A stretch of DNA of 64,000 nucleotides. Origin: Acaryochloris sp. CCMEE 5410 (GTDB taxonomy: Bacteria > Cyanobacteriota > Cyanobacteriia > Thermosynechococcales > Thermosynechococcaceae). Shown piece after piece: positions 19,303-33,140 of the stretch. The notes beneath the pieces are model-generated. The model did not search any database. It had not been told where the DNA came from and worked only from the letters and a program-made list of their open reading frames with translations. The DNA is taken from the NCBI RefSeq assembly GCF_000238775.2, contig NZ_AFEJ02000003.1, forward strand, positions 310,001 through 374,000, in the 5' to 3' direction. Positions within the stretch are counted from its first letter, which is position 1; every line of letters begins with the position of its first letter. The position numbers and the translations under genes were made by a program.

Positions 19303-19638
19303 CTAAGACGACTTTTCTTGATTTTGGATATATTGCTTCAATACTTCTGAAGGTGCCCCACCCACTGAGCAGACAAAATAGCTTGGACTCCATAAACTCT
19401 GTTGCTGGGGCTTCTGTAATCCAGCTTGGCCATATCGGCGACTAGAAACTTCCTTGAGTGAATTCACTATTAGAGACACAGATAGCTTAGGCGGATACTC
19501 AATCAATGCATGAACATGATCGGCCTTACCTTTGAACTCTAAAACCTGAAAATTCATTTTTTGAGCGACGGATCTAAAGGCATCCTCAATCACATCTAGT
19601 CCTTTAGCCTCAAAAACCTTCTTCCTGAATTTAGTCAC
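19303..19638 (-). CDS. tnpA: IS200/IS605 TnpA, Y1 HUH transposase (start unclear)
   Basis: The HUH motif is present as DHVHALIEYP and the catalytic Tyr as LKQYIQNQ, with the intervening helix SLKEVSSRRYG typical of IS200 TnpA. These enzymes cut and join single-stranded element ends. The frame stays open upstream to a stop at 19690-19692, and that part reads RHSVSDLKIHLICVTKF, which is the normal family N terminus, yet contains no ATG. Either translation begins at a rare codon near 19680 or the first strand has lost its start; the GTG given here would remove the first beta strand. The C terminus is intact. Confidence 0.8.
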   Translation of the reverse strand: MTKFRKKVFEAKGLDVIEDAFRSVAQKMNFQVLEFKGKADHVHALIEYPPKLSVSLIVNSLKEVSSRRYGQAGLQKPQQQSLWSPSYFVCSVGGAPSEVLKQYIQNQEKSS

Positions 19639-19720
19639 ACAAATCAGATGAATTTTCAGGTCAGAAACACTGTGTCTTTCCGTTCTTAGCTACTAAGTAC
19701 AAATGTACTATAATAGAGTC

Positions 19721-20923
19721 ATGAAGCTACGCTATCGGTATAGAGTCTATCCAACACAAAACCAGCAGACCAAATTGGCTCAGCTATTTGGTTGTTGTCG
19801 CGTTGTTTGGAATGATGCTTTGGCATTAGTGAAGCAATCTCAGGAGTTTCCCAAAAACTCAGACCTTCAAAAGAGTTGCATCACTCAGGCTAAGCGTACT
19901 GAACAGAGGTCATGGCTTAAGGAAGTATCTAACATTCCTCTGCAGCAATCTATTGCCGATTTAGGCGTTGCTATCAAAAACTATTTTGATTCCCAAAAGG
20001 GCAAACGCAAAGGGGCAGCCATAGGTTTCCCTCGGTTTAAGAAAAAAGATAACCGCCAATCTGCCCGATTCCGTAAGGGTGGATTCTCCATCAAAAATGG
20101 CAAGGTCTATTTGACAAAGATCGGCCACTTAAAGACGAAATGGTCAAGACCTCTACCGAGTGAACCTAGCTCCGTCACAATTATCAAAGACCGCAGGAAT
20201 CGCTATTTTCTTAGCTTTGTGGTTGAAGCTGAGGTGCAGAGTTCACCTGCTCCCAATGATGCCGTTGGCGTAGACTTGGGCATCAAAACCTTTGCTGTTT
20301 TGAGTACTGGGGAAAAGATTGATAGCCCCAGCTATCAAAAACTCAACCGTAAAATCAGACGGTTTCAACGACGATTATCTAAACGATTAAAAGGGTCTAA
20401 GCGAAGAGATTTGGCCCGATTGAAAGTGGCTAAGCTCAAAGCAAAACTCAGGGACACTCGCAAAGACTTTTTGCATAAGTTGTCTTCTAGGCTAATTAAC
20501 GAAAACCAAGTGATTGCTCTAGAAGACTTGAACGTCAAAGGGATGATCAAGAATCGTCGCCTGTCTCGTGCGATTAGCGAAGCGGGTTGGTCTGAGTTTC
20601 GGACGATGTGTGAGGCCAAGTCCCAAATGAACAGCCGTGAGGTTCGTGTCATCAGTCGTTGGGAGCCAACTAGCCAGTATTGCTCAGATTGCAGCTATAA
20701 GTGGGGCAAGTTAGATCTATCTGTTAGAGAGATTATCTGCCTTAGTTGCGGAACTCTTCAGGACAGAGATGGCAATGCTGCCACAAACATAAAGAATGTC
20801 GGGGTAGGGCATACCCACGACACTAAATGGACAGGGAGTGGGTGTAAGACCGATGTATCGGCTGTCTGCGATGAGCTGTCCACCCATCTAGTAGATGAAC
20901 AGCTTGTGCTGTTTGCTAGCTAG
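19721..20923 (+). CDS. tnpB: TnpB RNA-guided nuclease
   Basis: The start MKLRYRYRVYPTQNQQ is the standard TnpB opening. The RuvC catalytic residues are in GVDLGIKTFAVLS (Asp), VIALEDLNVKGM (Glu) and DRDGNAATNI (Asp), and a four-Cys zinc finger (CSDC and CLSCG) lies between the last two. At 400 residues it is full length and should be active. TnpB uses a right-end omega-RNA to cut DNA next to the left-end target motif and so favours element retention. TATAAT at 19709-19714 lies only six bases before the ATG, so the mRNA could be leaderless. It is divergent from tnpA. Confidence 0.93.
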   Translation: MKLRYRYRVYPTQNQQTKLAQLFGCCRVVWNDALALVKQSQEFPKNSDLQKSCITQAKRTEQRSWLKEVSNIPLQQSIADLGVAIKNYFDSQKGKRKGAAIGFPRFKKKDNRQSARFRKGGFSIKNGKVYLTKIGHLKTKWSRPLPSEPSSVTIIKDRRNRYFLSFVVEAEVQSSPAPNDAVGVDLGIKTFAVLSTGEKIDSPSYQKLNRKIRRFQRRLSKRLKGSKRRDLARLKVAKLKAKLRDTRKDFLHKLSSRLINENQVIALEDLNVKGMIKNRRLSRAISEAGWSEFRTMCEAKSQMNSREVRVISRWEPTSQYCSDCSYKWGKLDLSVREIICLSCGTLQDRDGNAATNIKNVGVGHTHDTKWTGSGCKTDVSAVCDELSTHLVDEQLVLFAS

Positions 20924-21097: not shown

Positions 21098-23095
21098 ATG
21101 CTATCCGCTGTTAATGTCAGCCCTGAACTGGCTGCAAGTTACTACTACGCCGAAGATATATCCCCTCGTCAAAATCGATGGGTGGGCCTGGGCGCTGTCA
21201 AGTTGGGATTGAAAGGAGAAGTTCTTGAAAACGACTTTCGCAAAATAGCGTATGGTAAGTTCCCCAATGGCATCCGCTTTCGTCAGTACACCCCTCCGAA
21301 GGGATGCATGAGTCGAGCCTTTGTAGATGGCACCCTATCTGCACCTAAAAGCGTTAGTTTTTTAGCCTTGTTGGATAAACGCGCTGACGTACAGTTGGCG
21401 GTCAATAATGCCGTTGATACTACGCTTGGAGTACTTGAGCGTAATTACAGCCAATGCCGAATCATGACAAACGGCATTAGTCGAACTGTTACCACAGGTA
21501 ATCTCATCATTGCAGTGTTTGAGCACCATACCAGCCGTGCCCTAGACCCCGAGTATCACCACCACTGCCTAATTGCTAACACCACACAGGCTCCGAATGG
21601 TCGGTACTATTCCCTCAAAAATGATGCTTTCTGCAAGCACCACCGGAAACTATTGGGGACCATTTACCAAAATGAGCTGGCCTGGAATCTGAGAAATTTG
21701 GGGTTCTCCATCAAGCCGCATGGCAATGGCACCTTTGATGTGATTGGATACACGCGATCGCAGATTCTCCACTTTTCTCAGCGAAGAGTGCAAATTTTGG
21801 AAACTGCACAAGGCCCTAGCTGGAAACAGAGGCATGTAGGCAACCTCAGAACTCGAACAGGAAAGCAAATCATACCTGAAGAAGATCTTAATCAGGAATG
21901 GGAGCAAAGGGCTGCTCTCATTGAGTTACCTCGGCTCGTTCCCCAGCCACATAGGTTAGCCCAAGTTTCAGATCTGAATCTAGAGTTACCCAACCAAGAG
22001 GAAGTAACCCAAGAGCAATTAATCCAAGACACTATTAATCAGCATTTTGGGGAATTTTCCTACTTCACCATCGAGGCCCACGTCAATCAAATTCTTCAAC
22101 AATCAGGAGAGAACATCAATGCCTACGGAAGCCCAAGAGCTGACTCTTCAAGATATTCACGAACTACTCAACCAGCGGTTAGACCAGTTCGAGCAGAATC
22201 AAACTCTCTTTCAGCAGAGCTTAGAACAATTGCTGATCGACTTTCTCAAGCAATTAACCGAAAAGCTGGAGTCAGAAGGGTCCAACGAGCTACAAGAGCT
22301 ATTAGAACAATTACAGAAAACCTTAGAAACCGTATCGGGACAACTTACAGATCAGGCCAGTACCGAAACGCAGCTTATCAGCTCCATGGCCAACTTAACC
22401 GAACAACTGTCCACCTTCAATCCTGGAAATTAGCTCGGGTAATAAGCAAGAGGAAAGTCCATCGTGCTGTGATTGCACATGTTGAACTTGGCAAGCTCAA
22501 AACCTTGAATCAGATGCTTCAGCTTCAATCTGGCCAAGTTGCCAAGGGTTTGTCACAACTGGAGCAATCTCTTTACAGAACAAGCCTGAAACTCTACGCA
22601 GTGCGGATTTCTAAGGCCGTCATCAAAGTGTCCCACCAAAGACAAATTCGGGAGGTGAAACTACCGGAACAACTCAATCAGAAACTTTATCAAAGGATTA
22701 TCCAGAAACGGCCTTATCGAAAGATGCAACTTGCGATCGCAAAGTGCAGCAAGCAGCTCTCTCATCAACAGGGATTAGAAGCAGCGAAGTCAATTCGTAC
22801 TATGTTCCTGGAGGTCGGTGTTGGTCAACAAGTTAGAGGGGGACACACCCTTAACGCGCAATCCCATATCTACAAACTTCAGGGGCAGCAGATCACTGTT
22901 GAAGCTAACGATGGGCGTGGACAAATCCTGTCAATACGTGGAGAGACAGTAGAAAGCAACCATTTAACGACTAAGGATCTAAAGGTTTTCCAAAAGCTGA
23001 AGCAAAAAGTGGAGAAATCCCTATCTCGCAAACGCGGGGAGCAACAGCCTCCATCGCCAAAATCCACTCGTCAAATTAACCCTATCAAACTTTAA
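21098..23095 (+). CDS. MOBF-type conjugative relaxase (TrwC-like, no helicase)
   Basis: The N terminus has the catalytic tyrosines in ELAASYYYAED (Y15-17) and the metal-binding HUH region TSRALDPEYHHHCLIANTTQ, as in TrwC/TraI. The relaxase cuts one strand at oriT, stays bound to its 5' end and is pumped into the recipient. At 665 residues it lacks the C-terminal helicase of TrwC; after ~residue 320 it is Gln/Arg-rich. The last ~90 residues form a module also seen at the C termini of the 331-aa protein just downstream and a 394-aa protein in the mating operon. Another gene is encoded inside it in a different frame. A plasmid helicase must be supplied by another protein. Confidence 0.88.
   Translation: MLSAVNVSPELAASYYYAEDISPRQNRWVGLGAVKLGLKGEVLENDFRKIAYGKFPNGIRFRQYTPPKGCMSRAFVDGTLSAPKSVSFLALLDKRADVQLAVNNAVDTTLGVLERNYSQCRIMTNGISRTVTTGNLIIAVFEHHTSRALDPEYHHHCLIANTTQAPNGRYYSLKNDAFCKHHRKLLGTIYQNELAWNLRNLGFSIKPHGNGTFDVIGYTRSQILHFSQRRVQILETAQGPSWKQRHVGNLRTRTGKQIIPEEDLNQEWEQRAALIELPRLVPQPHRLAQVSDLNLELPNQEEVTQEQLIQDTINQHFGEFSYFTIEAHVNQILQQSGENINAYGSPRADSSRYSRTTQPAVRPVRAESNSLSAELRTIADRLSQAINRKAGVRRVQRATRAIRTITENLRNRIGTTYRSGQYRNAAYQLHGQLNRTTVHLQSWKLARVISKRKVHRAVIAHVELGKLKTLNQMLQLQSGQVAKGLSQLEQSLYRTSLKLYAVRISKAVIKVSHQRQIREVKLPEQLNQKLYQRIIQKRPYRKMQLAIAKCSKQLSHQQGLEAAKSIRTMFLEVGVGQQVRGGHTLNAQSHIYKLQGQQITVEANDGRGQILSIRGETVESNHLTTKDLKVFQKLKQKVEKSLSRKRGEQQPPSPKSTRQINPIKL
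22119..22433 (+). CDS. Overprinted coiled-coil protein inside the relaxase gene
   Basis: A 104-residue protein encoded in another frame within the relaxase gene. A consensus Shine-Dalgarno (CAGGAGAG) stands at proper spacing before MPTEAQELTLQDIHELL. The sequence is a clean Leu/Gln/Glu heptad-type coiled coil (NQRLDQFEQNQTLFQQSLEQ and so on), unlike the Arg/Ser-rich low-complexity text of the relaxase frame here. Mobilisation plasmids such as RSF1010 also nest accessory genes (mobB in mobA), so a relaxosome accessory role is plausible. No homologue is claimed. Confidence 0.6.
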   Translation: MPTEAQELTLQDIHELLNQRLDQFEQNQTLFQQSLEQLLIDFLKQLTEKLESEGSNELQELLEQLQKTLETVSGQLTDQASTETQLISSMANLTEQLSTFNPGN

Positions 23096-23110
23096 AATCT
23101 GGAGGAACTT

Positions 23111-23572
23111 ATGCCTACAGTCACCAACATGAATATTCAACTCGACCCCGATCTTGCCCAATGGACCCGCGACTATGTGACCTTAAAACCTATCCAACAC
23201 TCATCAGAGGACTTGCAGGCACTGCTTAAACCATTAGGGCTGCTAGAGACTACCAGTTCTAGTGCTGACGATATATTGGCATCAATTGGCATTGCCATGA
23301 TCTGCAACTATGCAGAGACAGATGGGGGACCAGGCCCGGTAGCGATTAGCCCCACGACCAGTCCAGAAACTGCAAAGCAGCTCCTAGAGACATACCAGCA
23401 ACCCTCCTATCAGCAGCTTCGCCAGTCGATGGGAGTAACCCATCACTGGATTGTGTTACTGGGTCCAGACTTACTTCATGATTCCAACGAAATGCTGGAG
23501 GAAACGTGTGATTGGAGAGTAAACAACGACCCACATCCAGAATGCTCGATCATTAGCTTGGTTTATGACTAA
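23111..23572 (+). CDS. Hypothetical protein, relaxase operon
   Basis: A 153-residue soluble acidic protein with a good Shine-Dalgarno (TGGAGGAAC). It starts 15 bases after the relaxase stop and its own stop overlaps the next start (TAATG), so the three genes form one translationally coupled unit. There is no membrane segment or known motif; a central Gly-rich loop (ETDGGPGPVAISPT) and two Trp are the only marks. An accessory role in DNA transfer is inferred from location. Confidence 0.65.
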   Translation: MPTVTNMNIQLDPDLAQWTRDYVTLKPIQHSSEDLQALLKPLGLLETTSSSADDILASIGIAMICNYAETDGGPGPVAISPTTSPETAKQLLETYQQPSYQQLRQSMGVTHHWIVLLGPDLLHDSNEMLEETCDWRVNNDPHPECSIISLVYD

Positions 23573-24567
23573 TGGCCGATCATCAGAAAGTTGGCCAGGG
23601 AACGAAGGCGGAGAACTGGATCAAGGGAGTTGCAAAGGACTATCAAATTCAAGGTAGTATTGCCGCTTCGGTTGAAGATGTTATCAAACTATTTGGGAAA
23701 TACCACGACCACAAACTGAAGGAGGCAACCTTCAACTTTTCTCAGCGAAAAGAGTTAAAGCCCTACCCCGATGCACTCAATTTTATCGATCAAACCTTAC
23801 ACGGAATTAAAGGACAAAAGACAGCTCTCTCCCGAGATCCACAGTTTAAGCAGACTTTGAAGGATGTGTTACTCGATCAGTGTCTAGCGACTGATTTACT
23901 CGTTAAGGTCAAAGACCTCAAAGGACAAGAGCAGACCATTGCGATCGACGTGACGGTTAACCCGAATTCTCTCCCAAGTAAGCTAAACGTCATCCAAGGC
24001 AAACATAAGAACTCTAATCCCGGTAAAAAATTTAATACCAACCGAAATATGCCTTTGATGCGTGAACGGCTGGGAATTGATAAGCATATGGTTCTATGCC
24101 TTGACAGTAAGCAGTACCCACCCAAGGCTTCAGTGTTAGAGGCTATCTATGCATTTGCTAATGAAGCCAAGAAAACGACGGTTACTGATTTGTCGGATCA
24201 GGAGACGTTGAAGCAATTTAAGCCCCCAGAGCCCACGAAAGACGAGAAGACAGCTCTGATAATTGCTGATGCAGCTAGAGGGTTACTAACTGGCTTGAAA
24301 CTGGGAGTACAAAAAGGGAACGCTTTGGAATTTAAGAGTAAATCTTTCACCTTTCAACAACAGGGCAATACTGTCTCGCTTTCAGCTCCCAACAGAGGTG
24401 AAATATTGAGAGTCAAAGACAATATCATTCAGGTGAATAAATTAAATAAAGAGGATATCCAGCGAGGCATGGATATTGTCCAACGAGTAAATAGTAAGTT
24501 GCAAAGACCGATTCCTGGTCAGAACAAACCACAACAACGGCTACCATCAAAAAGACTTAAATTATGA
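23572..24567 (+). CDS. Hypothetical protein with relaxase-like C-terminal module
   Basis: A 331-residue protein. The N-terminal ~210 residues include LATDLLVKVKDLKGQ and then TIAIDVTVNP, a strand-turn-strand with Asp residues that faintly recalls a PD-(D/E)XK nuclease core, but the match is too weak to name. The last ~90 residues share a pattern with the relaxase C terminus: an AA-containing helix, then a Phe/Tyr strand, QxxxTVSL, RGEILRV, then LNKEDI and a basic tail. A diverged copy of its last 39 residues (26 identical, no gaps) recurs after the IscB element. It is coupled to the previous gene by TAATG. If the shared module is a secretion signal, this protein may be transferred with the DNA. 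Confidence 0.6.
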   Translation: MADHQKVGQGTKAENWIKGVAKDYQIQGSIAASVEDVIKLFGKYHDHKLKEATFNFSQRKELKPYPDALNFIDQTLHGIKGQKTALSRDPQFKQTLKDVLLDQCLATDLLVKVKDLKGQEQTIAIDVTVNPNSLPSKLNVIQGKHKNSNPGKKFNTNRNMPLMRERLGIDKHMVLCLDSKQYPPKASVLEAIYAFANEAKKTTVTDLSDQETLKQFKPPEPTKDEKTALIIADAARGLLTGLKLGVQKGNALEFKSKSFTFQQQGNTVSLSAPNRGEILRVKDNIIQVNKLNKEDIQRGMDIVQRVNSKLQRPIPGQNKPQQRLPSKRLKL

Positions 24568-24609
24568 TGGTGGCATTCTTAACTACTGGCAACAGGGTCA
24601 GCAACCTCT

Positions 24610-24843
24610 ATGAGCTAGCGACCCCTCTCTAACGGAAGAGGCTTGCAAATTCTATAGCTGACCATGGCTAAGTCTTAACTGACTACGTTTTTAAGGCCAA
24701 CTCACCCATAAATGCTTGCCAGTTTGTGGCTCTGAGGTTGGAGATTAAACAGAAGTATGAGGATTAATTCAGTGTCTCCAGCACGACAAACCTTAAAAAC
24801 ATTGCCGAGGCAAACATCACACGAAAGTAGAAGGGACGCAACA
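24610..24843 (+). ncRNA. Omega RNA of the IscB element
   Basis: The stretch between the previous gene and iscB starts ATGAGCTAGCGACCCCTC, then a stem closing at GAGGCTTG, the same order as upstream of isrB; GGATT..TTCAGTG and an AGGGAC block near the 3' end also recur. The guide should be the flanking ~16 bases just upstream (about 24594-24609). The RNA would end at or near the iscB start. Boundaries are inferred. Confidence 0.65.
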
Positions 24844-26121
24844 ATGTCCAACTATGTTTTTGTTATTGATACCAACCATAGACAACTCAATCCTTGTACG
24901 CCAGGGGTGGCACGTTCACTTTTGAATGCAACGAAGGCGGCAGTCTATCGACGGTATCCATTCACTATTATTCTCAAGAAGGAAGTTACGGGACCAGTTG
25001 AACCTTGCCAACTCAAGATTGACCCAGGTTCTAGAGCAACAGGGTTAGCGATTCTCCAAGGCAATAGAGTTCTCTGGGGTGCGGAACTAACTCATAGAGG
25101 CCAATCTATCAAGAACAGTCTGGATTCTCGCCGCTCACTCCGCAGAGGACGACGAGGACGAAAAACCCGATATCGTCAGCCCAGATTTCTCAATCGAACT
25201 CGACCAAAAGGCTGGCTAGCTCCCTCCTTAATGCACCGGGTATTGACCACCATGACTTGGGTAAATCGGCTTATCAAGCTTTGCCCAATCCAATCCATCA
25301 CCCAAGAACTGGTAAGGTTTGATACCCAAGTAATACAAAATCCTGAGATATCAGGTACTCAGTACCAGCAAGGCACTCTTTATCAATACGAGACACGAGA
25401 ATATCTCCTCGAAAAATGGGGACGGCAATGTGCCTACTGCGGTCAAGAAGACACTCCTTTAGAAGTAGAGCATATTGTTTCCCGCTCTAAAGGTGGGAGT
25501 AACCGCGTCTCTAATCTCACAATTGCCTGTGTGTCCTGCAATCAAAAGAAGTCTAATCGTTCTATCGAAGACTTTCTATCGGGCAAACCTGATCTGCTTA
25601 AGCGTATCAAGGCCCAAGCGAAAGCACCTCTTAAGGATGCCGCAGCCGTCAACGCGACACGCTGGAAACTGTTCAAAGCGCTGAAAGAGATGGGCCTTCC
25701 TGTTTCAGTTGGGACGGGTGGTCAGACCAAATTCAACCGCAAGCAACAGGGCTTACCCAAGGCGCATTGGATTGATGCAGCGGCAACGGGGAAAGACATC
25801 CCCGAGCTTGAGTTCTGCACCTGTCAGCCGTTGTTGATTCAATGTTCTGGTCATGGCACACGTCAAATGTGTGGCACAGACAAATACGGATTCCCAATCC
25901 GTCATCGGTCGAAGAAGAAGATTCACTACGGCTTCCAGACTGGTGATATCGTCAAGGCTTTTGTCACGCAAGGTAAAAAGATTGGCTCTTATATGGGGCG
26001 TGTTTTATGCCGGAAGTCTGGCAACTTCGATATCTCGACAAAAGATGGACGAGTAGCAGGAATCAATCACAAGCATTGCACGCATATTCATAAAAAGGAT
26101 GGTTACAACTATGCTTTCTAG
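24844..26121 (+). CDS. iscB: IscB RNA-guided endonuclease (RuvC + HNH)
   Basis: The start MSNYVFVIDTNHRQLNPC is the standard IscB opening and has AAGGGA eight bases before it; an upstream ATG would add 29 residues that belong to the RNA gene. RuvC-I is in LKIDPGSRATGLAIL, the bridge helix is RRSLRRGRRGRKTR, and RuvC-II is in ITQELVRFD. The HNH domain is CAYCGQEDTPLEVEHIVSRS with the CVSCNQKKSN second zinc half, and RuvC-III is in KAHWIDAAATG. The C terminus (GTDKYGFPIRHRSKKKIHYG onwards) is the target-motif-reading domain. All catalytic residues are present, so it should cut double-stranded DNA guided by its omega-RNA. IscB is the likely ancestor group of Cas9. Confidence 0.93.
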   Translation: MSNYVFVIDTNHRQLNPCTPGVARSLLNATKAAVYRRYPFTIILKKEVTGPVEPCQLKIDPGSRATGLAILQGNRVLWGAELTHRGQSIKNSLDSRRSLRRGRRGRKTRYRQPRFLNRTRPKGWLAPSLMHRVLTTMTWVNRLIKLCPIQSITQELVRFDTQVIQNPEISGTQYQQGTLYQYETREYLLEKWGRQCAYCGQEDTPLEVEHIVSRSKGGSNRVSNLTIACVSCNQKKSNRSIEDFLSGKPDLLKRIKAQAKAPLKDAAAVNATRWKLFKALKEMGLPVSVGTGGQTKFNRKQQGLPKAHWIDAAATGKDIPELEFCTCQPLLIQCSGHGTRQMCGTDKYGFPIRHRSKKKIHYGFQTGDIVKAFVTQGKKIGSYMGRVLCRKSGNFDISTKDGRVAGINHKHCTHIHKKDGYNYAF

Positions 26122-26257
26122 ATTCGTTGATTTGGGGTCTCGTTCGCGAAGCGTCTCGGAACGAAAAACCCCTTTAATTATCGTTCCTATCTCTACCCTC
26201 CCTACCGCATCGCTCACGCCCCTCGCTAAAGGAAGGGACTTCCTGGAGGTTCTGGTG

Positions 26258-26377
26258 AAGGAGGATATCAAGTTAGGCATGGATATTGTAAAAGGAGTTC
26301 CCTCTAAGTTGGAAAGATCTATCCCTGGCCAGACAGAACCGCAGCAAAGGCCATCATCCAAGGGACCAAAGTTGTAG
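26258..26377 (+). pseudogene. Decayed duplicate of the 3' end of the 331-aa gene
   Basis: The final 39 codons plus stop match the end of the 331-aa gene without gaps: KEDIKLGMDIVKGVPSKLER against KEDIQRGMDIVQRVNSKLQR, with 26 of 39 residues identical. The rest of the copy is missing, replaced by the IscB element. It is either a tandem paralogue interrupted by insertion or a remnant from recombination. The divergence shows the duplication is not recent. Confidence 0.75.
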
Positions 26378-26433
26378 TTTGGGTATCTATACTACCCTGC
26401 GCTACCATTTCCTTAGCTAACTGGGTGTTGTTA

Positions 26434-27099
26434 ATGATGATCCAAAAACCTCTTTTCAAAGATATTCGGTGGCTCTTTTCCCTTGGAATAGTGGGTTGGT
26501 ATATCATCTGTCCATCAAAAGGTGTCGCTCAAAATTACCCCAAAACATCCAGGCAATCGACACTGTTGTTGGCACAAAGTAAACCAAGTGCAGTTCAGTA
26601 TTACGTCCGAGCACAGGAAGCGCTAGCAGATGGTGATTCAGATACTGCAATTAAACTACTCAAGCGAGGACTTCAGCTTAATCCTGAGCCAGGAATGAAA
26701 GGCTTAATGAGGCTAAGCCTATTTATTGTTCATCAATATTCTGGAAATCTTAACGCCGGATCACCAAGCGAAACATTGAACAGGAAGGCTATTTTTCATT
26801 TAACAGAGGCAATAAAGCTAAATCCGAATGCATTTTGGCCCTACGCCAGACGTGGTGACGCTTACTGTGCCCTCAAAATGGTCCAAGAATGCATTCGTGA
26901 CCACACCAAGTCTATTAGTCGTAATCCAGACAAAGGTGATGCTTATTGGCGTAGGTCTGTTGCATATGCAGAAATTAATGATTTCAGATCCGCGATCGCA
27001 GATCTGAAAAGATCATCATCTTATTATCGGCAAATTGGGAAATCAAAGCAGGCAGAAACAATGGAGAAGCTAATTGAGGCTTATTCAGATGGCAGCTAG
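26434..27099 (+). CDS. Exported TPR protein
   Basis: An N-terminal hydrophobic segment (WLFSLGIVGWYIICPSKGVAQ) looks like a signal peptide. Two to three tetratricopeptide repeats follow, for example AIKLLKRGLQLNPEPGMKGL, HLTEAIKLNPNAFWPYARRG and ECIRDHTKSISRNPDKGDAY. TPRs mediate protein-protein contacts, here likely in the periplasm. ATG at 26434 is preferred to the upstream GTG. It converges with topA, with 14 bases between the genes. The partner is unknown. Confidence 0.75.
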   Translation: MMIQKPLFKDIRWLFSLGIVGWYIICPSKGVAQNYPKTSRQSTLLLAQSKPSAVQYYVRAQEALADGDSDTAIKLLKRGLQLNPEPGMKGLMRLSLFIVHQYSGNLNAGSPSETLNRKAIFHLTEAIKLNPNAFWPYARRGDAYCALKMVQECIRDHTKSISRNPDKGDAYWRRSVAYAEINDFRSAIADLKRSSSYYRQIGKSKQAETMEKLIEAYSDGS

Positions 27100-27113
27100 T
27101 TAAACTCTATCTG

Positions 27114-29234
27114 TTATTCTAATTCACCATACTTTGGACTCCACCATTTCCCCTTACTAAAGAAATAGGCAGCGTTTTTGTGCTTTGGCTTTGACCTTGC
27201 CTTTGGATCTGAGCATCGGAGCATTTGTTTTTGCTGGCCATCTTTTTGATACTTGTATATTTCCAGCTTCTTCTGGCACACAGGACAAGGATATTCAGTT
27301 AATTCTGCTGGCTCTTGAGGCATATCAGATTTAGCCTTGGGCAATTGCCACTGACCGTCTCTGTCTGACCAGAACATAACTAACCCCCGGCCATCATCAG
27401 CCGCGCAACCGTTCTCACACTTAAGAAAATGCCCTTTTTTGACCTTCCTACTAAGCACCTTAGACAGAAGTTGTTTACATTTGGGACATGAGGTTTTTGA
27501 CTTCTCTAATGTTCTACCTGTAAGTTCCGGTAAGCCCTGCATGGCCTTGGCGAGTGCCGGGGCGAAGTAGCTCCGATTCCAGCCGATTAAATAAGCTTGC
27601 CATTCCTGATTCCCTCCCGCGATCGCATCCAAGGAACTCTCCATCTGGGCCGTGAATTCAGCCTCCAACAATTCAGGCAGTGCCCCACCCATGAACTGAT
27701 CCACCTCCAGGCCCATAGAAGTGGGTTGGAGCCTACCCTTTATCAGCTCAACATAGCCACGGGTCTTAATGGTCTTGATCGTGGAATCGTAAGTAGAGGG
27801 TCTGCCAATCCCTTTCTTCTCCATAATTTCCACTAGCTTAGGTTCCCTGTATCGGGGAGGCGGTTGAGTCTGCTTTTGCTCAGAATTGGCCTGGGCTAGA
27901 GTGAGTGCTTGTTGTTCCGTCAGTGCAGGCAGCTCCCTATCAGCCTTGATATCCTTCCAATATTTTGAGTAACCCGCAAATTCAACAAGGTTGCCCTTGG
28001 CCTTCCACTGGATATCCCCAGATTGGCTAAGGACAATCGTTTTTCTAATTTGGGCGGGCTTGCACTGGGAGGCAAGCGCCCGCTTCCAAATCAGCACATA
28101 TAACTTGAACTGGTCATCGGGTAGGGACTGCTTCAATTCTGCGGAGGGCTTGAATATATCTGTGGGTCGAATAGCTTCATGCCCTTCCTGGGCTTGCTTA
28201 CTGACCTTCTGCTTGGCTACCTTCTTGGGAATATTGTCTGCATCGTTCTGCTCCAGCCATCTTCTGGCCACTGAACAGTAGTCCGGGGATAGCGCGACAG
28301 AATCGGTTCGCATGTAGGTGATTAATCCAGCCTCGTATAGCTTTTGGGCAACCTGCATCGTCTGCTCTGGACTGAACTTGAGGCGTGAACCTGCGGCTTG
28401 TTGCAGAGCTGAGGTGGTAAACGGTGCGGGTGGCTTCTTGGGGGCAACCCTGCCTTCAATCGAGGTAACTTGGTGAGAGTTATTCTGCGCGATCGCAACC
28501 AGTGAATCAGCGCCAGCCTGGGAAAGGACTCGCGTGGATTCTTCGGTTTTGGCCTCTGAACCGGAGTCCTCGATGTTGGTATAGTCCTGATCATTGGCCT
28601 GGGTGCTTCCGTGGTAGTAAGCCCTGAATCCTTCGGCATAATCCACAAACACCGACCAGTAATCCTCGGGGACAAAGGCTTGAATCTCGCGCTCTTGTTG
28701 GCAGACCAAGTGGAGGGTCGCTGATTGCACCCGCCCCACTGACTTAGCACCATTGTTTAAGCGCCAGACCAGGGGGGAACCACGATACCCGACCAGCTTA
28801 TCCAAGCAGTCTCGACACCTACCGGCTTGAACTAAATCCATATCCAATGGACGTGGAGTTGAAATAGCATTGTTTACTGCTGTAGGCGTAATTTCTTGAT
28901 AGACCACCCGTTGAGGATTTTTTAAATTTAAAACCTGAGCGATATGCCAACCAATCGTTTCTCCTTCACGATCTGGATCGGATGCTATATAGACTTGATC
29001 TGCCTGACGTGACGCTTTTCTCAATCCAGAAATAGTTTTTTGGGCATTCGCATCTCGTGGAACATACCGGCATAAAATCTGATTCCCTTCAATATCAAAG
29101 CCCAAAGATCCTTCCCCATCATCCGCTAACTGACGAATGTGCCCTACAGATGCCTTAACATCCCAATTAGGACCAAGAATCGATTTGAGCTTTTTGATTT
29201 TTCCAGGAGATTCAACAATGAGTAAATTTCCCAC
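27114..29234 (-). CDS. topA: Type IA DNA topoisomerase (topoisomerase I)
   Basis: The TOPRIM motifs are LLIVESPGKIKKL at the start and SDPDREGETIGWH; the catalytic Tyr is in GLITYMRTDSVAL. Two C-terminal zinc-ribbon-like segments follow (CPKCKQLL and CPVCQKKL). It relaxes negative supercoils by passing one strand through another. At 706 residues it is shorter than most chromosomal cyanobacterial enzymes. Plasmid-borne type IA topoisomerases beside T4SS genes (TraE/TopB-like) are known to assist conjugation or replication. It is the last gene of the long minus-strand mating cluster. Confidence 0.93.
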   Translation of the reverse strand: MGNLLIVESPGKIKKLKSILGPNWDVKASVGHIRQLADDGEGSLGFDIEGNQILCRYVPRDANAQKTISGLRKASRQADQVYIASDPDREGETIGWHIAQVLNLKNPQRVVYQEITPTAVNNAISTPRPLDMDLVQAGRCRDCLDKLVGYRGSPLVWRLNNGAKSVGRVQSATLHLVCQQEREIQAFVPEDYWSVFVDYAEGFRAYYHGSTQANDQDYTNIEDSGSEAKTEESTRVLSQAGADSLVAIAQNNSHQVTSIEGRVAPKKPPAPFTTSALQQAAGSRLKFSPEQTMQVAQKLYEAGLITYMRTDSVALSPDYCSVARRWLEQNDADNIPKKVAKQKVSKQAQEGHEAIRPTDIFKPSAELKQSLPDDQFKLYVLIWKRALASQCKPAQIRKTIVLSQSGDIQWKAKGNLVEFAGYSKYWKDIKADRELPALTEQQALTLAQANSEQKQTQPPPRYREPKLVEIMEKKGIGRPSTYDSTIKTIKTRGYVELIKGRLQPTSMGLEVDQFMGGALPELLEAEFTAQMESSLDAIAGGNQEWQAYLIGWNRSYFAPALAKAMQGLPELTGRTLEKSKTSCPKCKQLLSKVLSRKVKKGHFLKCENGCAADDGRGLVMFWSDRDGQWQLPKAKSDMPQEPAELTEYPCPVCQKKLEIYKYQKDGQQKQMLRCSDPKARSKPKHKNAAYFFSKGKWWSPKYGELE

Positions 29235-29304
29235 AGTATTTAACCTTGAACCGACTTGTAAATTTCAAAGGAAGTTGCAAGATATGTTGTTGACCTGAAT
29301 AAAA

Positions 29305-29682
29305 TTAAGATTTTCCTAATATCAATTCATGATCATTACAATCAGAAGACTCAGATGTCTCAGGTATTTTTGTTTGTAGTTCTGAAACCATAGAATCAGT
29401 TTTGCCTAAATGAATGAGTATATCGGCTCTTAGCTCCACAGCCTCTTTGCAGTATGGATGAGCAGCAACATACACATTTAATGCCTGTAGTGCAACTAAA
29501 TAGTTTCCTTGATTTGACTCTTTAAGTACATAGTCTTGCCAGGTCTGAGATACACCAAAATCACTTGTAAAAACAATATACATACCAAACAGCGCCATCG
29601 ATAACAAGCCAATGGGTGAGAGTATTAGGGCCATCATTGAATATGACCCTAATATTCCTGACGTTTTACTGAAAAACCCCAT
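29305..29682 (-). CDS. Small membrane protein with TPR-like tail
   Basis: 125 residues: one membrane helix (YSMMALILSPIGLLSMALFGMYIVF) followed by a short outer part with TPR-like helices (YLVALQALNVYVAAHPYCKEAVEL). Start ATG. It lies between topA and the coiled-coil protein in the same orientation, so it is probably part of the mating cluster. No family recognised. Confidence 0.6.
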   Translation of the reverse strand: MGFFSKTSGILGSYSMMALILSPIGLLSMALFGMYIVFTSDFGVSQTWQDYVLKESNQGNYLVALQALNVYVAAHPYCKEAVELRADILIHLGKTDSMVSELQTKIPETSESSDCNDHELILGKS

Positions 29683-29705
29683 TGAGATTATCCAAGCGAC
29701 ATCAC

Positions 29706-30890
29706 CTACCTTTTTACGGCAACTGGTCTTTGTTTTGCAACTGGGGGTTTCTGTTGAGGAGTCTGAGTCTGCTTGTCCGCGTACTTATCACGGCCTTTTT
29801 GTCCGACTTTATCCAGAAGGCCCTGCTCCTTTGCCGTTAATTGCTCTGAAGGAATGGGCTCACCAGACTCTTTACGGGACATCGTTACCTGTCCATCTTT
29901 AGCCATCTTGAGATTGTAGTCTTTAGTTTCAAGAACCCTAGAACCGTCATCCTGTGGAGTGCCCGCATTTTTTATTGCCAATCGAACACCAGGATCTACG
30001 GCCTTGAGCGCAGCATTGGTTACTTTGTTCACGGCCCCCTTAGTAACTTTTTGTGTCTGAGACTTTATTTGCTGACTTTTATCTTTGACTCTCTGGGACC
30101 ATTTCTGAGTGACGGACTTATAAGCTGAGACTACTTTATCTTTTATGGTTTTCAGCCATTGACCAACAGAGCTTGAGCGTTTCGTCGCAACCGCTTGCTG
30201 GGTATCTTTATTCTGCTCTAGTGCAGCTATCCGTTGCTCTAATTTAGCGATAGCCGCCTGTTGAGCAGCAACCATACCTTTCAGCTCTTCAACAGAAGCT
30301 GATAAAGATTGCTTTTTCTCCCCAGATTGCTTTGCCTGGGAAGAGCTACCTGTTTGCTGCTTCACTTGCTCAGACTGCTTAGCAGCTTTTTTCGTTGCTT
30401 CCGTTAAGGTATCAATGGCTTGATCCAGTGATTTTTTCGACTTAGTTGAGCTAGATGCAGCCTCTTGAGAAGTAGATTGCTTCTGCTTCTCTGATTGAAA
30501 AACCCCTAAATCATCGTTTACTTTGCCCTTGCTTATGTGGGCAGCAGGATCAGACATATCTCCTACATACACCTTGACACTACCTTTAACCTTCTGAGGG
30601 TCTGAAAAGGCTTTTTGAAAAGTATCTCGGTGTTCAGGTTTGAGATTGTACTTCCCATCTTTGGCAGATAGCGTTTCTGATTTGTAGACGTTGACCCTAC
30701 CTACTTTAATTGTGACGGGAGTATTGTCTGGAAGTCCTTTGGCTTTAGCAGCTTTTCTAATTTGTGCAATAGCTTGGCCAATCGAACGTAATACGTCTTG
30801 GGCAGATTCTGCTGCACCTTGAGCTACGCTTAATTGTGTCTGTTGTCCTTCTTGGCCATTGTCTGGCAGATCTATTCCTTGTTCTGGCAT
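29706..30890 (-). CDS. Basic coiled-coil protein with relaxase-like C-terminal module
   Basis: 394 residues rich in Lys, Gln and Ser. The N-terminal ~130 residues contain a beta-type segment (TPVTIKVGRVNVYKSETLS), then a disordered Ser/Lys region, a coiled coil (LKGMVAAQQAAIAKLEQRIA) and a basic helix region. Residues ~290-394 fit the module shared with the relaxase and the 331-aa protein: AALKAVDPGVRLAI, then LETKDYNLK, DGQVTMSRK, QLTAKEQ and a basic Pro/Gln tail. There is no signal peptide. If the module is a transfer signal, this may be a DNA-binding protein moved into recipients. No family recognised. Confidence 0.6.
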   Translation of the reverse strand: MPEQGIDLPDNGQEGQQTQLSVAQGAAESAQDVLRSIGQAIAQIRKAAKAKGLPDNTPVTIKVGRVNVYKSETLSAKDGKYNLKPEHRDTFQKAFSDPQKVKGSVKVYVGDMSDPAAHISKGKVNDDLGVFQSEKQKQSTSQEAASSSTKSKKSLDQAIDTLTEATKKAAKQSEQVKQQTGSSSQAKQSGEKKQSLSASVEELKGMVAAQQAAIAKLEQRIAALEQNKDTQQAVATKRSSSVGQWLKTIKDKVVSAYKSVTQKWSQRVKDKSQQIKSQTQKVTKGAVNKVTNAALKAVDPGVRLAIKNAGTPQDDGSRVLETKDYNLKMAKDGQVTMSRKESGEPIPSEQLTAKEQGLLDKVGQKGRDKYADKQTQTPQQKPPVAKQRPVAVKR

Positions 30891-30937: not shown

Positions 30938-31360
30938 TTATTCTTCAGGCAATTCAGGGAGCACTAGATCCTTGATCATCATGTTGAGCACACCTTCAGC
31001 CGCCGCAATTTCAGTGGGCAAAACTAATCCACCGAGGGTATTCAACAGAATCTCACCTTGAATTTCGCTATATCGAGGCGTGCCATCCACATCAATACCA
31101 ATGACATCATTGGTGATCTCGAAGATGGAGAAATCACCATCCACCAGTTCATCATCATGAAAAACTATTGCTGGCTCCGCTGACAGTCCTCCATATACTT
31201 CAAGGATTTCGGCTTTATATCCATCAGGTAGCGGAGTTACCGAAGCAAACTCAGCCGCACTAATCACTTGGTCGGGGTAATCTTGAGCGAATTGATTATA
31301 TATGGCTGTTGGAAGAATCTTACGAGCCATATCCAGATCGCTTTCTAATAATTTATTCAT
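30938..31360 (-). CDS. Hypothetical acidic protein downstream of the coupling protein
   Basis: The start MNKLLESDLDMARK has GGAGATAAAG ahead of it, just after the coupling-protein stop; a longer reading would overlap that gene. It is acidic, mostly beta/alpha mixed (EPAIVFHDDELVDGDFSIFE), soluble and has no Cys. No family recognised. Location suggests an accessory to the coupling protein or the relaxosome. Confidence 0.6.
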   Translation of the reverse strand: MNKLLESDLDMARKILPTAIYNQFAQDYPDQVISAAEFASVTPLPDGYKAEILEVYGGLSAEPAIVFHDDELVDGDFSIFEITNDVIGIDVDGTPRYSEIQGEILLNTLGGLVLPTEIAAAEGVLNMMIKDLVLPELPEE

Positions 31361-31373
31361 TGCTTTATCTCCG

Positions 31374-33140
31374 TTATAGGTTTCTAAACTCTTCAGCATC
31401 CTTAAGACGCTGCTTCTCTAATGCAGCCTCCTGCTCTGGCGTCAATCGAGCTTTTAGAAGCTCGTATACCTCTTGATCTCGATTCCGAAAATCTTGATTT
31501 GTTGGCATTGAAAAAGCTGATCTTTCTATCAGCTCTTGCCGAATCTTTGGCCATTGTTTTACGCTTGCGTTTACCTCATCAATATCCCTCTGAGGAATGA
31601 CGATGTTTTCCACCAGGGGAACACGAACATTTTTACCATCACTATTGCCACGACTGAAGATCAGTGCTTTTCCACGAGGGAAAGTGGCAATTTCATTTGG
31701 TTCAACTAACTTAGTCGTTTGGCGCTGTTCAGCATTGGTTGTAGACCGACTTTTTCTACCGCTACTTCTAGATCTTTGCCGAAATAATGCGTCTTCACTA
31801 CCTGGAAGTTCTGCGAATAGCTTAGCAGATTCTGACTCATTGAGCTGGAAAATAGCTTGAGTCGTGCAGCCACCAAGAATACGGCTTGCCCCCGGCTTCG
31901 TATAAAGCTTTTCTAGCATCTCCATACTTTGAAAGCCCAAAATTGTGCAAAGACCTGCTGAGCGCCGTTGGTTCAACCAATCATCCAGGGCGGGTAAGAA
32001 GATAGATGGTATTTCATCCAACCCCAATATCAATGGAGTCTGGCGAGGACGAGTAACATTACGATTGACAACTAAGTGCAATACCGTTGCAATAATAGGC
32101 AACACAACATCCACACACTGTCCATTAACTCCAAATATCAAGAGCTGCCGACCCTCTAAGTCAAGTGGCATGTTTGTTTTGCCACATATTGCAGGTAGTA
32201 CATTAGGAGTCATTAGGTTGCCCAAGGTATTGGACACCGTAGACACAATACTGGCGAATGTCTCAGGAGAATCCTTTGAGGAAATCATGGTATCAAATAC
32301 CACTTTGACCATCTCTGGAATATCAGCCTGTTCAATGAGATCTGCCAGATTTGGTGTTTTGAGAATGCTCCTGCACATCATTAGGTCTGGATACTGACTC
32401 ATTTTGGCCAGCATCATCAACCCCTGAATGAGCTTTTGGGCTGCTTGGGGAAAAAATGGATTGCCTTCGCTAGACTTTGCCGGTGTGAAATTCCTATGCA
32501 AGACCAAGGCAAATTGACGTGCTATTTCAGCATCCAGCTCATTAGCCAATAAATCGACTGGATTAACAATGCATGACTCAGGCAAGCTGGGAGCGAAAAC
32601 ATTGACTTTATAACCTCGTTTTTTTGCTATGCCAATTAATTGCGAGGTTGGCGACTCTTTATCCGTATACTTCAAGTCGAAGTAAATGACTGGGAAATGC
32701 TGGTCAAATGCTGCTTTAATCAGTCGGTTAATCAACGAGTAGGACTTTCCCGAACCCGTTGCCCCGATCGCGGCTGTACCAGCTTCCATGTTCGGGAAGT
32801 ATAAGGTTTGTGGATCTTCTGGAATACTAATAACCGTCTTCTTCCCCTTCTTCCGGTATCTCAGTCCTTCAGGGGTTTGGATATACAACGCCACCTCGTT
32901 ATGCCGCCTCCGCTTGATCAGCTTCATAGCTTCTTTGCGGGCAGCAGCTTTGTGGGTATCTGTTGCAAGTTGCCCCCTCGCCAATACACCCTTGCGCTTT
33001 TGACCTTTAAAGTTTGTCGCGACTAACAGTCCCAAGCACGCATAAATCCCTAATGCGGGGGGAGACCATAGATAAGAATCCACATCCACCTTAGGTGGAG
33101 ACTTAGGGTTTTCGACGGCTTGGGCGGTGAAATGCTTCAT
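31374..33140 (-). CDS. virD4: Type IV coupling protein (VirD4/TraD family ATPase)
   Basis: Walker A GATGSGKS is at 126-133 and Walker B at LILGLDEIPSI; an N-terminal membrane helix (GIYACLGLLVATNF) anchors it. T4CPs receive the relaxosome and feed it into the mating channel. The 588-residue length is normal. Its ATG overlaps the stop of the preceding gene (ATGA), showing translational coupling. Only one N-terminal helix is clear where most T4CPs have two. Together with the relaxase and VirB4 it makes the plasmid self-transmissible by inference. Confidence 0.9.
   Translation of the reverse strand: MKHFTAQAVENPKSPPKVDVDSYLWSPPALGIYACLGLLVATNFKGQKRKGVLARGQLATDTHKAAARKEAMKLIKRRRHNEVALYIQTPEGLRYRKKGKKTVISIPEDPQTLYFPNMEAGTAAIGATGSGKSYSLINRLIKAAFDQHFPVIYFDLKYTDKESPTSQLIGIAKKRGYKVNVFAPSLPESCIVNPVDLLANELDAEIARQFALVLHRNFTPAKSSEGNPFFPQAAQKLIQGLMMLAKMSQYPDLMMCRSILKTPNLADLIEQADIPEMVKVVFDTMISSKDSPETFASIVSTVSNTLGNLMTPNVLPAICGKTNMPLDLEGRQLLIFGVNGQCVDVVLPIIATVLHLVVNRNVTRPRQTPLILGLDEIPSIFLPALDDWLNQRRSAGLCTILGFQSMEMLEKLYTKPGASRILGGCTTQAIFQLNESESAKLFAELPGSEDALFRQRSRSSGRKSRSTTNAEQRQTTKLVEPNEIATFPRGKALIFSRGNSDGKNVRVPLVENIVIPQRDIDEVNASVKQWPKIRQELIERSAFSMPTNQDFRNRDQEVYELLKARLTPEQEAALEKQRLKDAEEFRNL

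What the first reader, a model, noticed from the sequence alone, without database searches (positions are those of the whole stretch)
22830..30890. C-terminal module shared by the relaxase, a 331-aa and a 394-aa plasmid protein: possible secretion signal
The three C termini share an order of features: a small-residue helix, a Tyr/Phe strand, a QxxTV-like strand, RGxIL in two of them, an L-x-x-x-D/E stretch and a basic Pro/Gln tail. The relaxase must be exported by the mating channel, and T4SS substrates usually carry C-terminal signals. Inference: the other two are effectors moved along with DNA. Relevant parts are about 22830-23095, 24290-24567 and 29706-30020.
Basis: partly seen in the sequence, partly recalled or inferred. 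Interest (0 to 1): 0.7.

Follow-up and report, generated by a model that had tools for sequence, protein, structure and literature searches.

The report
Shared C-terminus of plasmid-transfer proteins
Three proteins of a large cyanobacterial plasmid carry a related small domain followed by very similar last few residues, and such last residues recur on conjugation proteins of related plasmids, so they are a good candidate for the address label that sends proteins through the mating channel.

Summary
The shared C termini are real. The relaxase and the 331-aa protein carry one ~80-aa domain (helix, six strands, helix in the AF2 model); the 394-aa protein carries a shortened, diverged copy. No library model covers it. 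The domain alone does not behave like a secretion signal: most cyanobacterial MOBF relaxases seen here lack it, and it sits on chromosomal PIN-toxin proteins in genomes where mostly (9 of 12) no coupling protein was found. What tracks transfer is the last few residues. In the 416-kb plasmid 3 of 350 ORFs end in hydrophobic-Lys-Leu/Arg: exactly these three. In 18 Nostoc-type loci 27 of 241 ORFs end in a basic-hydrophobic-x-Arg tail, all 27 relaxases or the protein encoded beside the coupling protein. Tail type tends to match within a plasmid. The 394-aa protein is a conserved neighbour of the coupling protein; the 331-aa protein has a PD-(D/E)XK-like domain. Best reading: a C-terminal T4SS signal in the tail, with the domain as optional partner, resembling BID plus basic tail. 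Transfer is untested, and the tail patterns were chosen after seeing part of the data.

The parts
21098..23095 (+). MOBF (TrwC-type) relaxase, 665 aa; relaxase domain at residues 15-273, no helicase domain found
   Evidence: PF08751 E 4.5e-64; NCBIfam MobF E 5e-62
22772..23014 (+). C-terminal module of the relaxase (residues 559-639)
   Evidence: module HMM (this protein is a seed); pairwise BLASTP to p331
23015..23092 (+). basic Pro/Gln linker and C-terminal tail ...NPIKL of the relaxase
23111..23572 (+). 153-aa protein between relaxase and p331, homologues in the same place in related plasmids
23572..24567 (+). 331-aa protein: PD-(D/E)XK-like N domain (residues 1-216) plus module plus tail
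   Evidence: AF2 model pLDDT 84, pTM 0.79; VIA-align top rows mostly PD-(D/E)XK nucleases, best Z 6.1
24253..24492 (+). C-terminal module of the 331-aa protein (residues 228-307)
   Evidence: AF2 model alpha-beta6-alpha
24493..24564 (+). basic linker and C-terminal tail ...KRLKL of the 331-aa protein
29706..30890 (-). 394-aa protein, second gene downstream of the coupling protein: N-terminal double-repeat domain, coiled-coil-like middle, short module, tail
   Evidence: N-domain HMM and synteny
29784..30041 (-). short, diverged module of the 394-aa protein (about residues 284-369)
   Evidence: hhalign 87%, E 3.7e-6; HMM E 9.6e-4
29709..29783 (-). Pro/Gln-rich linker and C-terminal tail ...VAVKR of the 394-aa protein
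30938..31399 (-). 153-aa protein (p153b) between coupling protein and p394, conserved in that place
31374..33140 (-). T4SS coupling protein (TraG/TraD/VirD4 type), the expected reader of the signal
   Evidence: PF12696, PF10412, PF02534
26249..26377 (+). remnant of a second copy of the p331 3' end (ends ...SKGPKL)
   Evidence: 63% aa identity to residues 290-330; 74% over 104 nt

Best explanation
The relaxase, the 331-aa and the 394-aa protein carry a common C-terminal recognition region for this plasmid's mating system. Its specific part is the extreme C-terminal tail (hydrophobic-Lys-Leu/Arg here; basic..hydrophobic-x-Arg in Nostoc-type plasmids; Glu-Leu/Met in a few), which the coupling protein most likely reads. 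The folded alpha-beta6-alpha module upstream is a mobile accessory domain that many of the tail-bearing proteins have and others lack; it may strengthen docking, as the BID domain does with its basic tail. On this reading p394 is a conserved coupling-protein partner that docks like a substrate and may travel with the relaxase, and p331 is a PD-(D/E)XK-like protein that may be delivered with the DNA. Shown: homology of the modules, specificity of the tails in the sequences examined, synteny. Inferred: recognition by the coupling protein, and transfer.
For: Plasmid C3: of 350 non-overlapping ORFs of 100 aa or more, 3 end in hydrophobic-K-[L/R], exactly these three. Nostoc-type loci: 27 of 241 complete ORFs end in [RK].{0,3}hydrophobic[RKHSG]R, all 27 being relaxases or the p394-type protein. 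PLSDB loci fetched later: hydrophobic-x-R at the end of 11 of 15 relaxase features and 5 of 5 p394-position proteins, against 0 of 4 coupling proteins, 0 of 5 p153b, 0 of 4 ArdA and 0 of 4 restriction-endonuclease-annotated neighbours. Codons of the paired tails differ, so gene conversion is unlikely. Net tail charge of relaxase and p394-position protein correlates within plasmids, rho 0.57 over 21 pairs, permutation p 0.005; 0.63 over 10 lineages, p 0.026. Pattern-free BLOSUM rank of the last 4 residues: p331 3rd of 348 and p394 13th of 348 against the window relaxase. p394-type proteins without a clear module keep a tail like their relaxase's (509 aa SEPEL, 734 aa VTMSR).
Against: No translocation data. 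Tail patterns were chosen after seeing the window; many Nostoc loci are close relatives. In pNOS3756_2, 4 of 61 ORFs end in hydrophobic-x-R, two of them T4SS parts. Pattern-free ranks fail in G191 (11 of 11) and for the L014 p331 homologue (17 of 17). p331 homologues elsewhere do not follow the stricter basic pattern (0 of 8). G080/G231-type tails (RRQEV, LRLK; IQKA, TQKA) fit only loosely. p394 could be a fixed component that is never exported.
Confidence: 0.5

Rival explanations
1. The module is a general interaction domain (protein or nucleic acid binding) that has nothing to do with secretion; its presence on three plasmid proteins reflects domain shuffling among nucleic-acid-acting proteins.
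For: It is the C-terminal part of chromosomal PIN-domain proteins paired with an HTH_17 antitoxin-like gene; 9 of 12 such genomes have no coupling protein and 8 of 12 neither coupling protein nor VirB4. One copy is inside a WD40-repeat protein. Hosts include three nuclease types (relaxase, PD-(D/E)XK-like, PIN).
Against: 23 of 47 places of the A2 survey are in the gene beside the coupling protein and 4 more in relaxase, p331 or the FolD-like neighbour (my reading). Module cores are not strongly basic (mean net charge +3.2 relaxases, +1.1 p394-type, -0.4 PIN), which speaks against plain DNA binding. It does not explain the tails.
Confidence: 0.25
2. p394 is a fixed adaptor of the coupling protein: its relaxase-like tail occupies or presents the same docking site (a TraM-like role by analogy), and it is not transferred.
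For: Same position, second gene downstream of the coupling protein, across plasmids; conserved N-terminal double repeat found in 19 of 41 coupling-protein loci read.
Against: Its tail copies the relaxase's tail type, as expected of a competing substrate; p331 and a FolD-like protein with module lie in the same kind of neighbourhood.
Confidence: 0.35
3. The modules pair with one another, so that relaxase, p331 and p394 form one relaxosome complex; secretion signals lie elsewhere.
For: Two tandem modules in several p394-type proteins and in the L014 relaxase; in L014 relaxase and p331 homologue have the most alike modules, 35% identity, E 1e-19.
Against: Modules are missing from most relaxases whose plasmids have a module-bearing p394.
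Confidence: 0.15
4. Chance resemblance of low-complexity basic C termini.
For: Short tails and Pro/Gln linkers recur by chance; p394 has no meaningful BLAST match.
Against: Genome-wide single-query search, profile match, 3 of 350 ORFs, 27 of 241.
Confidence: 0.03

Closest known systems
BID domain plus positively charged C-terminal tail (alpha-proteobacterial TraA relaxases, VbhT/Fic, PezT/Zeta-BID, Bartonella Beps)
   Same: About 100-aa C-terminal domain plus short tail, shared by a relaxase and other plasmid proteins; the domain also on toxin-antitoxin toxins; tandem copies in some proteins (passages of PMC6509941 and PMC5675462)
   Different: Predicted fold here is alpha-beta6-alpha, BID is helical (recalled); cyanobacterial MOBF systems; the module is missing from most relaxases; PIN versions occur without a detected coupling protein; transfer not shown
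[quoted passage not shown]
   Same: Basic/hydrophobic extreme C terminus on the relaxase and a second protein (described in passages of PMC6509941)
   Different: Here the signature ends hydrophobic-x-Arg/Leu and tends to match in type between proteins of one plasmid, with an acidic variant
Proteins co-transferred by F-type conjugation (ParA, ParB, SSB, PsiB and others)
   Same: Plasmid proteins other than the relaxase moved by a conjugation T4SS (abstract and passages of PMC8406263)
   Different: No shared module or tail is named in the passages read; different proteins
RSP_2648-family PIN proteins
   Same: PIN domain of the chromosomal module-bearing proteins (NCBIfam E 1.1e-27 for residues 8-187 of L020's protein, 97 bits, below the curated cut-off of 170)
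   Different: These carry the module as an added C-terminal domain

Membership tests
BID-type bipartite T4SS signal | C-terminal folded domain shared by relaxase and other substrates | tested here: met
   for the window's three proteins; module on only a minority of relaxases; that p331 and p394 are substrates is not shown
BID-type bipartite T4SS signal | short charged C-terminal tail after the domain | tested here: met
   (basic in most; acidic in a few, so only partly the BID pattern)
BID-type bipartite T4SS signal | sequence homology to BID (profile match) | tested here: inconclusive
   no Pfam, NCBIfam or PHROGs model matches the module region convincingly; BID sequences were not compared directly
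BID-type bipartite T4SS signal | same fold | tested here: inconclusive
   AF2 module model mean pLDDT 75, mixed alpha/beta; no confident PDB match, best Foldseek E 0.4, best VIA Z 3.7 with rmsd 3.9 over 81
BID-type bipartite T4SS signal | directs transfer of a reporter through a T4SS | not testable with these tools
   needs a Cre translocation assay
T4SS-confined domain | confined to proteins of cells with a T4SS | tested here: not met
   9 of 12 PIN-module genomes have no coupling protein at E 1e-5; 8 of 12 neither that nor VirB4
MOBF relaxase | TrwC relaxase domain | tested here: met
   PF08751 E 4.5e-64, NF041492 above cut-off
PD-(D/E)XK nuclease (p331 N domain) | core fold | tested here: inconclusive
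   top VIA rows mostly such nucleases, best Z 6.1, rmsd 3.1, 91 aligned; Foldseek no hit at 0.001
PD-(D/E)XK nuclease (p331 N domain) | D...(D/E)xK active site | tested here: inconclusive
   invariant D108; D126 in I-D-V-T, so the usual Lys place holds Thr; nearby Lys 137 is kept in most rows

The most novel reading that the evidence does not exclude
Cyanobacterial conjugative plasmids use their own bipartite delivery code: an alpha-beta6-alpha module plus a lineage-specific terminal tail, captured by a relaxase, a coupling-protein partner, a PD-(D/E)XK-like nuclease and other cargo (a FolD-like enzyme), so that a nuclease and other proteins enter the recipient with the DNA; PIN toxin-antitoxin loci took up the same module, in parallel with the Fic/PezT-BID story in alpha-proteobacteria.
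Probability: 0.25. Interest if true: 0.8.

Novelty: new variant of a known kind. Interest (0 to 1): 0.58.

Why it matters
T4SS substrates are hard to predict. In this group of cyanobacterial plasmids the last few residues pick out the relaxase and one or two partner proteins from hundreds of ORFs, which gives a simple, testable rule for finding proteins that travel with the DNA, and a domain family so far without a name in the libraries searched.

Tried and rejected
Module as a confined T4SS signal: rejected because of the PIN proteins in genomes without coupling protein and the many relaxases without module. Tail likeness by gene conversion or a shared inverted repeat between convergent relaxase and p394 genes: rejected, codons differ. 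Weak chromosomal hit in a sensor kinase (L003, E 0.28): chance. L077 (calcium-binding repeat protein, internal, E 2e-5), G373 and G262 hits: taken as chance, not counted as module proteins. Sequence search of the PDB with the module and the p331 domain: nothing usable; tblastn of p331 against plasmids: none. Viral contigs: no relatives of the p331 family, a p394-type or a PIN-module protein. Module tree: few columns, little resolved, relaxase and p331 labels scattered. In the VIA rows of the module, Polo-box chains recur at about Z 3.0-3.5; too weak to use. BID was not among the listed rows; that is no evidence either way. Whether the module exists outside Cyanobacteriota was not tested beyond the viral scans and one genome-contig scan with the p331 family.
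Full report
What is there. The window is bases 310001-374000 of a 416-kb contig (C3) of an 8.09-Mb cyanobacterial genome; I take the host to be Acaryochloris-like from its size and relatives (inference; the named loci are from Acaryochloridaceae and Thermosynechococcaceae bins, an Aphanocapsa bin and a Coleofasciculus bin). The three ORFs are as described: a MOBF relaxase, a 331-aa protein two genes downstream, and a 394-aa protein on the other strand, separated from the coupling protein by one small gene. A T4SS operon follows.

The module. Relaxase and p331 C termini match directly, and p331 is the second-best match of the whole genome to the relaxase C terminus. p394 joins only by profile: hhalign 87%, E 3.7e-6 using orthologues from three related T4SS loci, and third place among 350 plasmid ORFs with the module HMM. 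The AF2 model, from seven sequences, is helix, six short strands, helix; mean pLDDT 75, block means 75-89 for residues 1-80. No confident relative in the PDB. No Pfam, NCBIfam or PHROGs model covers it convincingly in the proteins scanned.

Where else it occurs. In 386 cyanobacterial genomes the 26-row profile gives 47 places in 30 genomes at E 0.01 or better (seeds included). By my reading: 23 places in the protein beside the coupling protein, 2 relaxases, 1 p331 (the window's), 1 FolD-like protein next to a T4SS, 3 plasmid proteins of about 1600 aa, 12 PIN-domain proteins (three of them seen only as short open frames with the same C-terminal part), 1 WD40 protein, 1 stand-alone 126-aa protein, and 3 that I take for chance. 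In the five PIN loci read for context the gene before the PIN gene codes for the HTH protein (HTH_17 tested for L020's), and several lie on chromosome-sized contigs. 9 of 12 of those genomes have no coupling protein at E 1e-5 and 8 of 12 have neither that nor VirB4 (G369 has a VirB4 with an internal stop). So the module works, whatever it does, without a T4SS.

The coupling-protein neighbour. A search with the window's coupling protein found 44 places in 31 of 386 genomes at E 1e-30. I read 41 of the 44 (the window and 40 fetched; G094, G300 and G317 were not fetched): 24 of 41 have a module-bearing protein in the locus. The printed tally, also 24 of 41, differs in make-up: it leaves out the window and includes L017 from another genome. 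The N-terminal double repeat of p394 was found in 19 of the 41 loci, including proteins of the window genome's other plasmids that lack a clear module (509 aa on C5, 734 aa on C7). p394 is therefore a member of a family tied to the coupling protein.

The tails. Reading the C-terminal residues of these proteins showed that relaxases without the module end like the p394-type proteins of their own plasmids: LRFRR/RNMHR, PKFRR/KGMRR, RGLRR/RNLGR. Tests: (1) plasmid C3, 3 of 350 ORFs of at least 100 aa end in hydrophobic-K-[L/R], the three proteins of the finding (pattern chosen from them, so the useful number is 0 among the other 347). (2) 18 Nostoc-type loci, 27 of 241 complete ORFs end in [RK].{0,3}hydrophobic[RKHSG]R, all of them relaxases or p394-type (eight of the loci had been seen before the pattern was set, and several are near relatives). 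(3) PLSDB loci fetched after the idea: 11 of 15 relaxase features and 5 of 5 p394-position proteins end in hydrophobic-x-R; the four relaxases that do not are L109 (345 aa, next to a transposase), L110, L111 (431 aa) and L115 (742 aa, whose separately annotated downstream part ends RFRR); controls 0 of 17. (4) pNOS3756_2, 61 ORFs: four end in hydrophobic-x-R, of which relaxase and p394 have the basic form, the other two are T4SS parts. (5) Wider first count over 48 loci: stricter pattern in 7 of 13 relaxases, 9 of 27 p394/module proteins, 0 of 8 p331 homologues, 5 of 182 T4SS machine proteins, 0 of 26 other plasmid proteins, 8 of 312 unannotated ORFs. (6) Charge of the last six residues correlates within plasmids: 21 pairs, rho 0.57, p 0.005; 10 lineages, rho 0.63, p 0.026; the acidic cases are C5 of this genome (NELEM/SEPEL), G325 (QFEL/GAEL, relaxase net zero) and G191 (QQEL/AVGE, genes about 62 kb apart on one contig). 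Fisher test for acidic against not: p 0.014 over all pairs, 0.067 at lineage level. The pairs were picked by hand from the loci with both ends visible. (7) Pattern-free ranking by BLOSUM62 on the last four residues: p331 third and p394 thirteenth of 348; p394-type first to third in most other loci; fails in G191 and for the L014 p331 homologue.

p331. Its N domain is found in four related genomes, with a homologue of the 153-aa gene directly upstream in the loci read, and alone beside VirB4 in a Coleofasciculus bin. Of the p331 homologues, those of L014, L016 and L017 have the module; those of L015 (two copies), L018 and L053 do not. The AF2 model ranks mostly PD-(D/E)XK nucleases at modest Z (best 6.1, AF1548; also XisH of Anabaena, BsaWI, DdmD; that all these share the fold is partly recalled). 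The usual catalytic Lys is not in its usual place, so activity is open.

Mechanism. Most likely the coupling protein reads the tail; the module is an optional second element or serves another contact. The parallel is the BID domain with its basic tail, present in relaxases, TA-type toxins and effectors (passages of PMC6509941 and PMC5675462). Conjugation systems are known to move other plasmid proteins (abstract and passages of PMC8406263). Conjugative plasmids in Acaryochloris and Nostoc and a monophyletic cyanobacterial VirB4 clade are in print (passages of PMC3158045). Five literature searches showed no paper on this module or tail in their listings; that is a narrow search of open-licence papers.

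Verdict.

Noticed in passing
window 24614-24820 (+) and 24757-26121 (+): HEARO RNA (RF02033, 137 bits) directly upstream of and overlapping an RRXRR plus HNH gene: an IscB-type element with its guide RNA (family name recalled), lying between p331 and the remnant of a second p331 copy.
   Followed up: partly
window 26249-26377 (+): Remnant of a duplicated p331 3' end, 74% identical over 104 nt, still ending in PKL.
   Followed up: partly
window 19303-20923: Short minus-strand transposase-like ORF next to a TnpB-like ORF; looks like an IS200/IS605 element (recalled, no family search run).
   Followed up: no
L056:8142-9632 (-), plasmid pCENA543a region: FolD-like enzyme with the module at its C terminus, gene next to the p394-type gene of a T4SS locus. 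The plasmid name rests on equal contig length (67,080 bases).
   Followed up: partly
L074, L075, L076: Plasmid-type proteins of about 1600-1700 aa without Pfam match (L076 tested) that carry the module at the C terminus.
   Followed up: partly
L088:4627-5686 (+): HTH plus PIN-like gene pair directly downstream of a MOBF relaxase, without the module (named by reading, no family search); a possible source for the module-PIN fusions.
   Followed up: no
L086:14847-15701 (+) and L146:4541-8080 (-): In genome G010, which has a coupling protein, the PIN-module protein ends QPFSR and the relaxase ends IGFSR, whereas most PIN proteins of genomes without one end QTP, QTT or similar. One case only.
   Followed up: partly
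L115, L117, L119, L120: A 'restriction endonuclease'-annotated gene with a hydrophobic N terminus lies beside the relaxase in several Nostoc plasmids, and in L117 between relaxase and p394-type gene; it lacks the tail.
   Followed up: partly
L107/L150 and L144 (contigs C7 and C4 of the same genome): Two further relaxase systems with near-identical relaxase ends (RSRNIKRGRGR, RSRNLKRGRGR) and convergent p394-like genes.
   Followed up: partly
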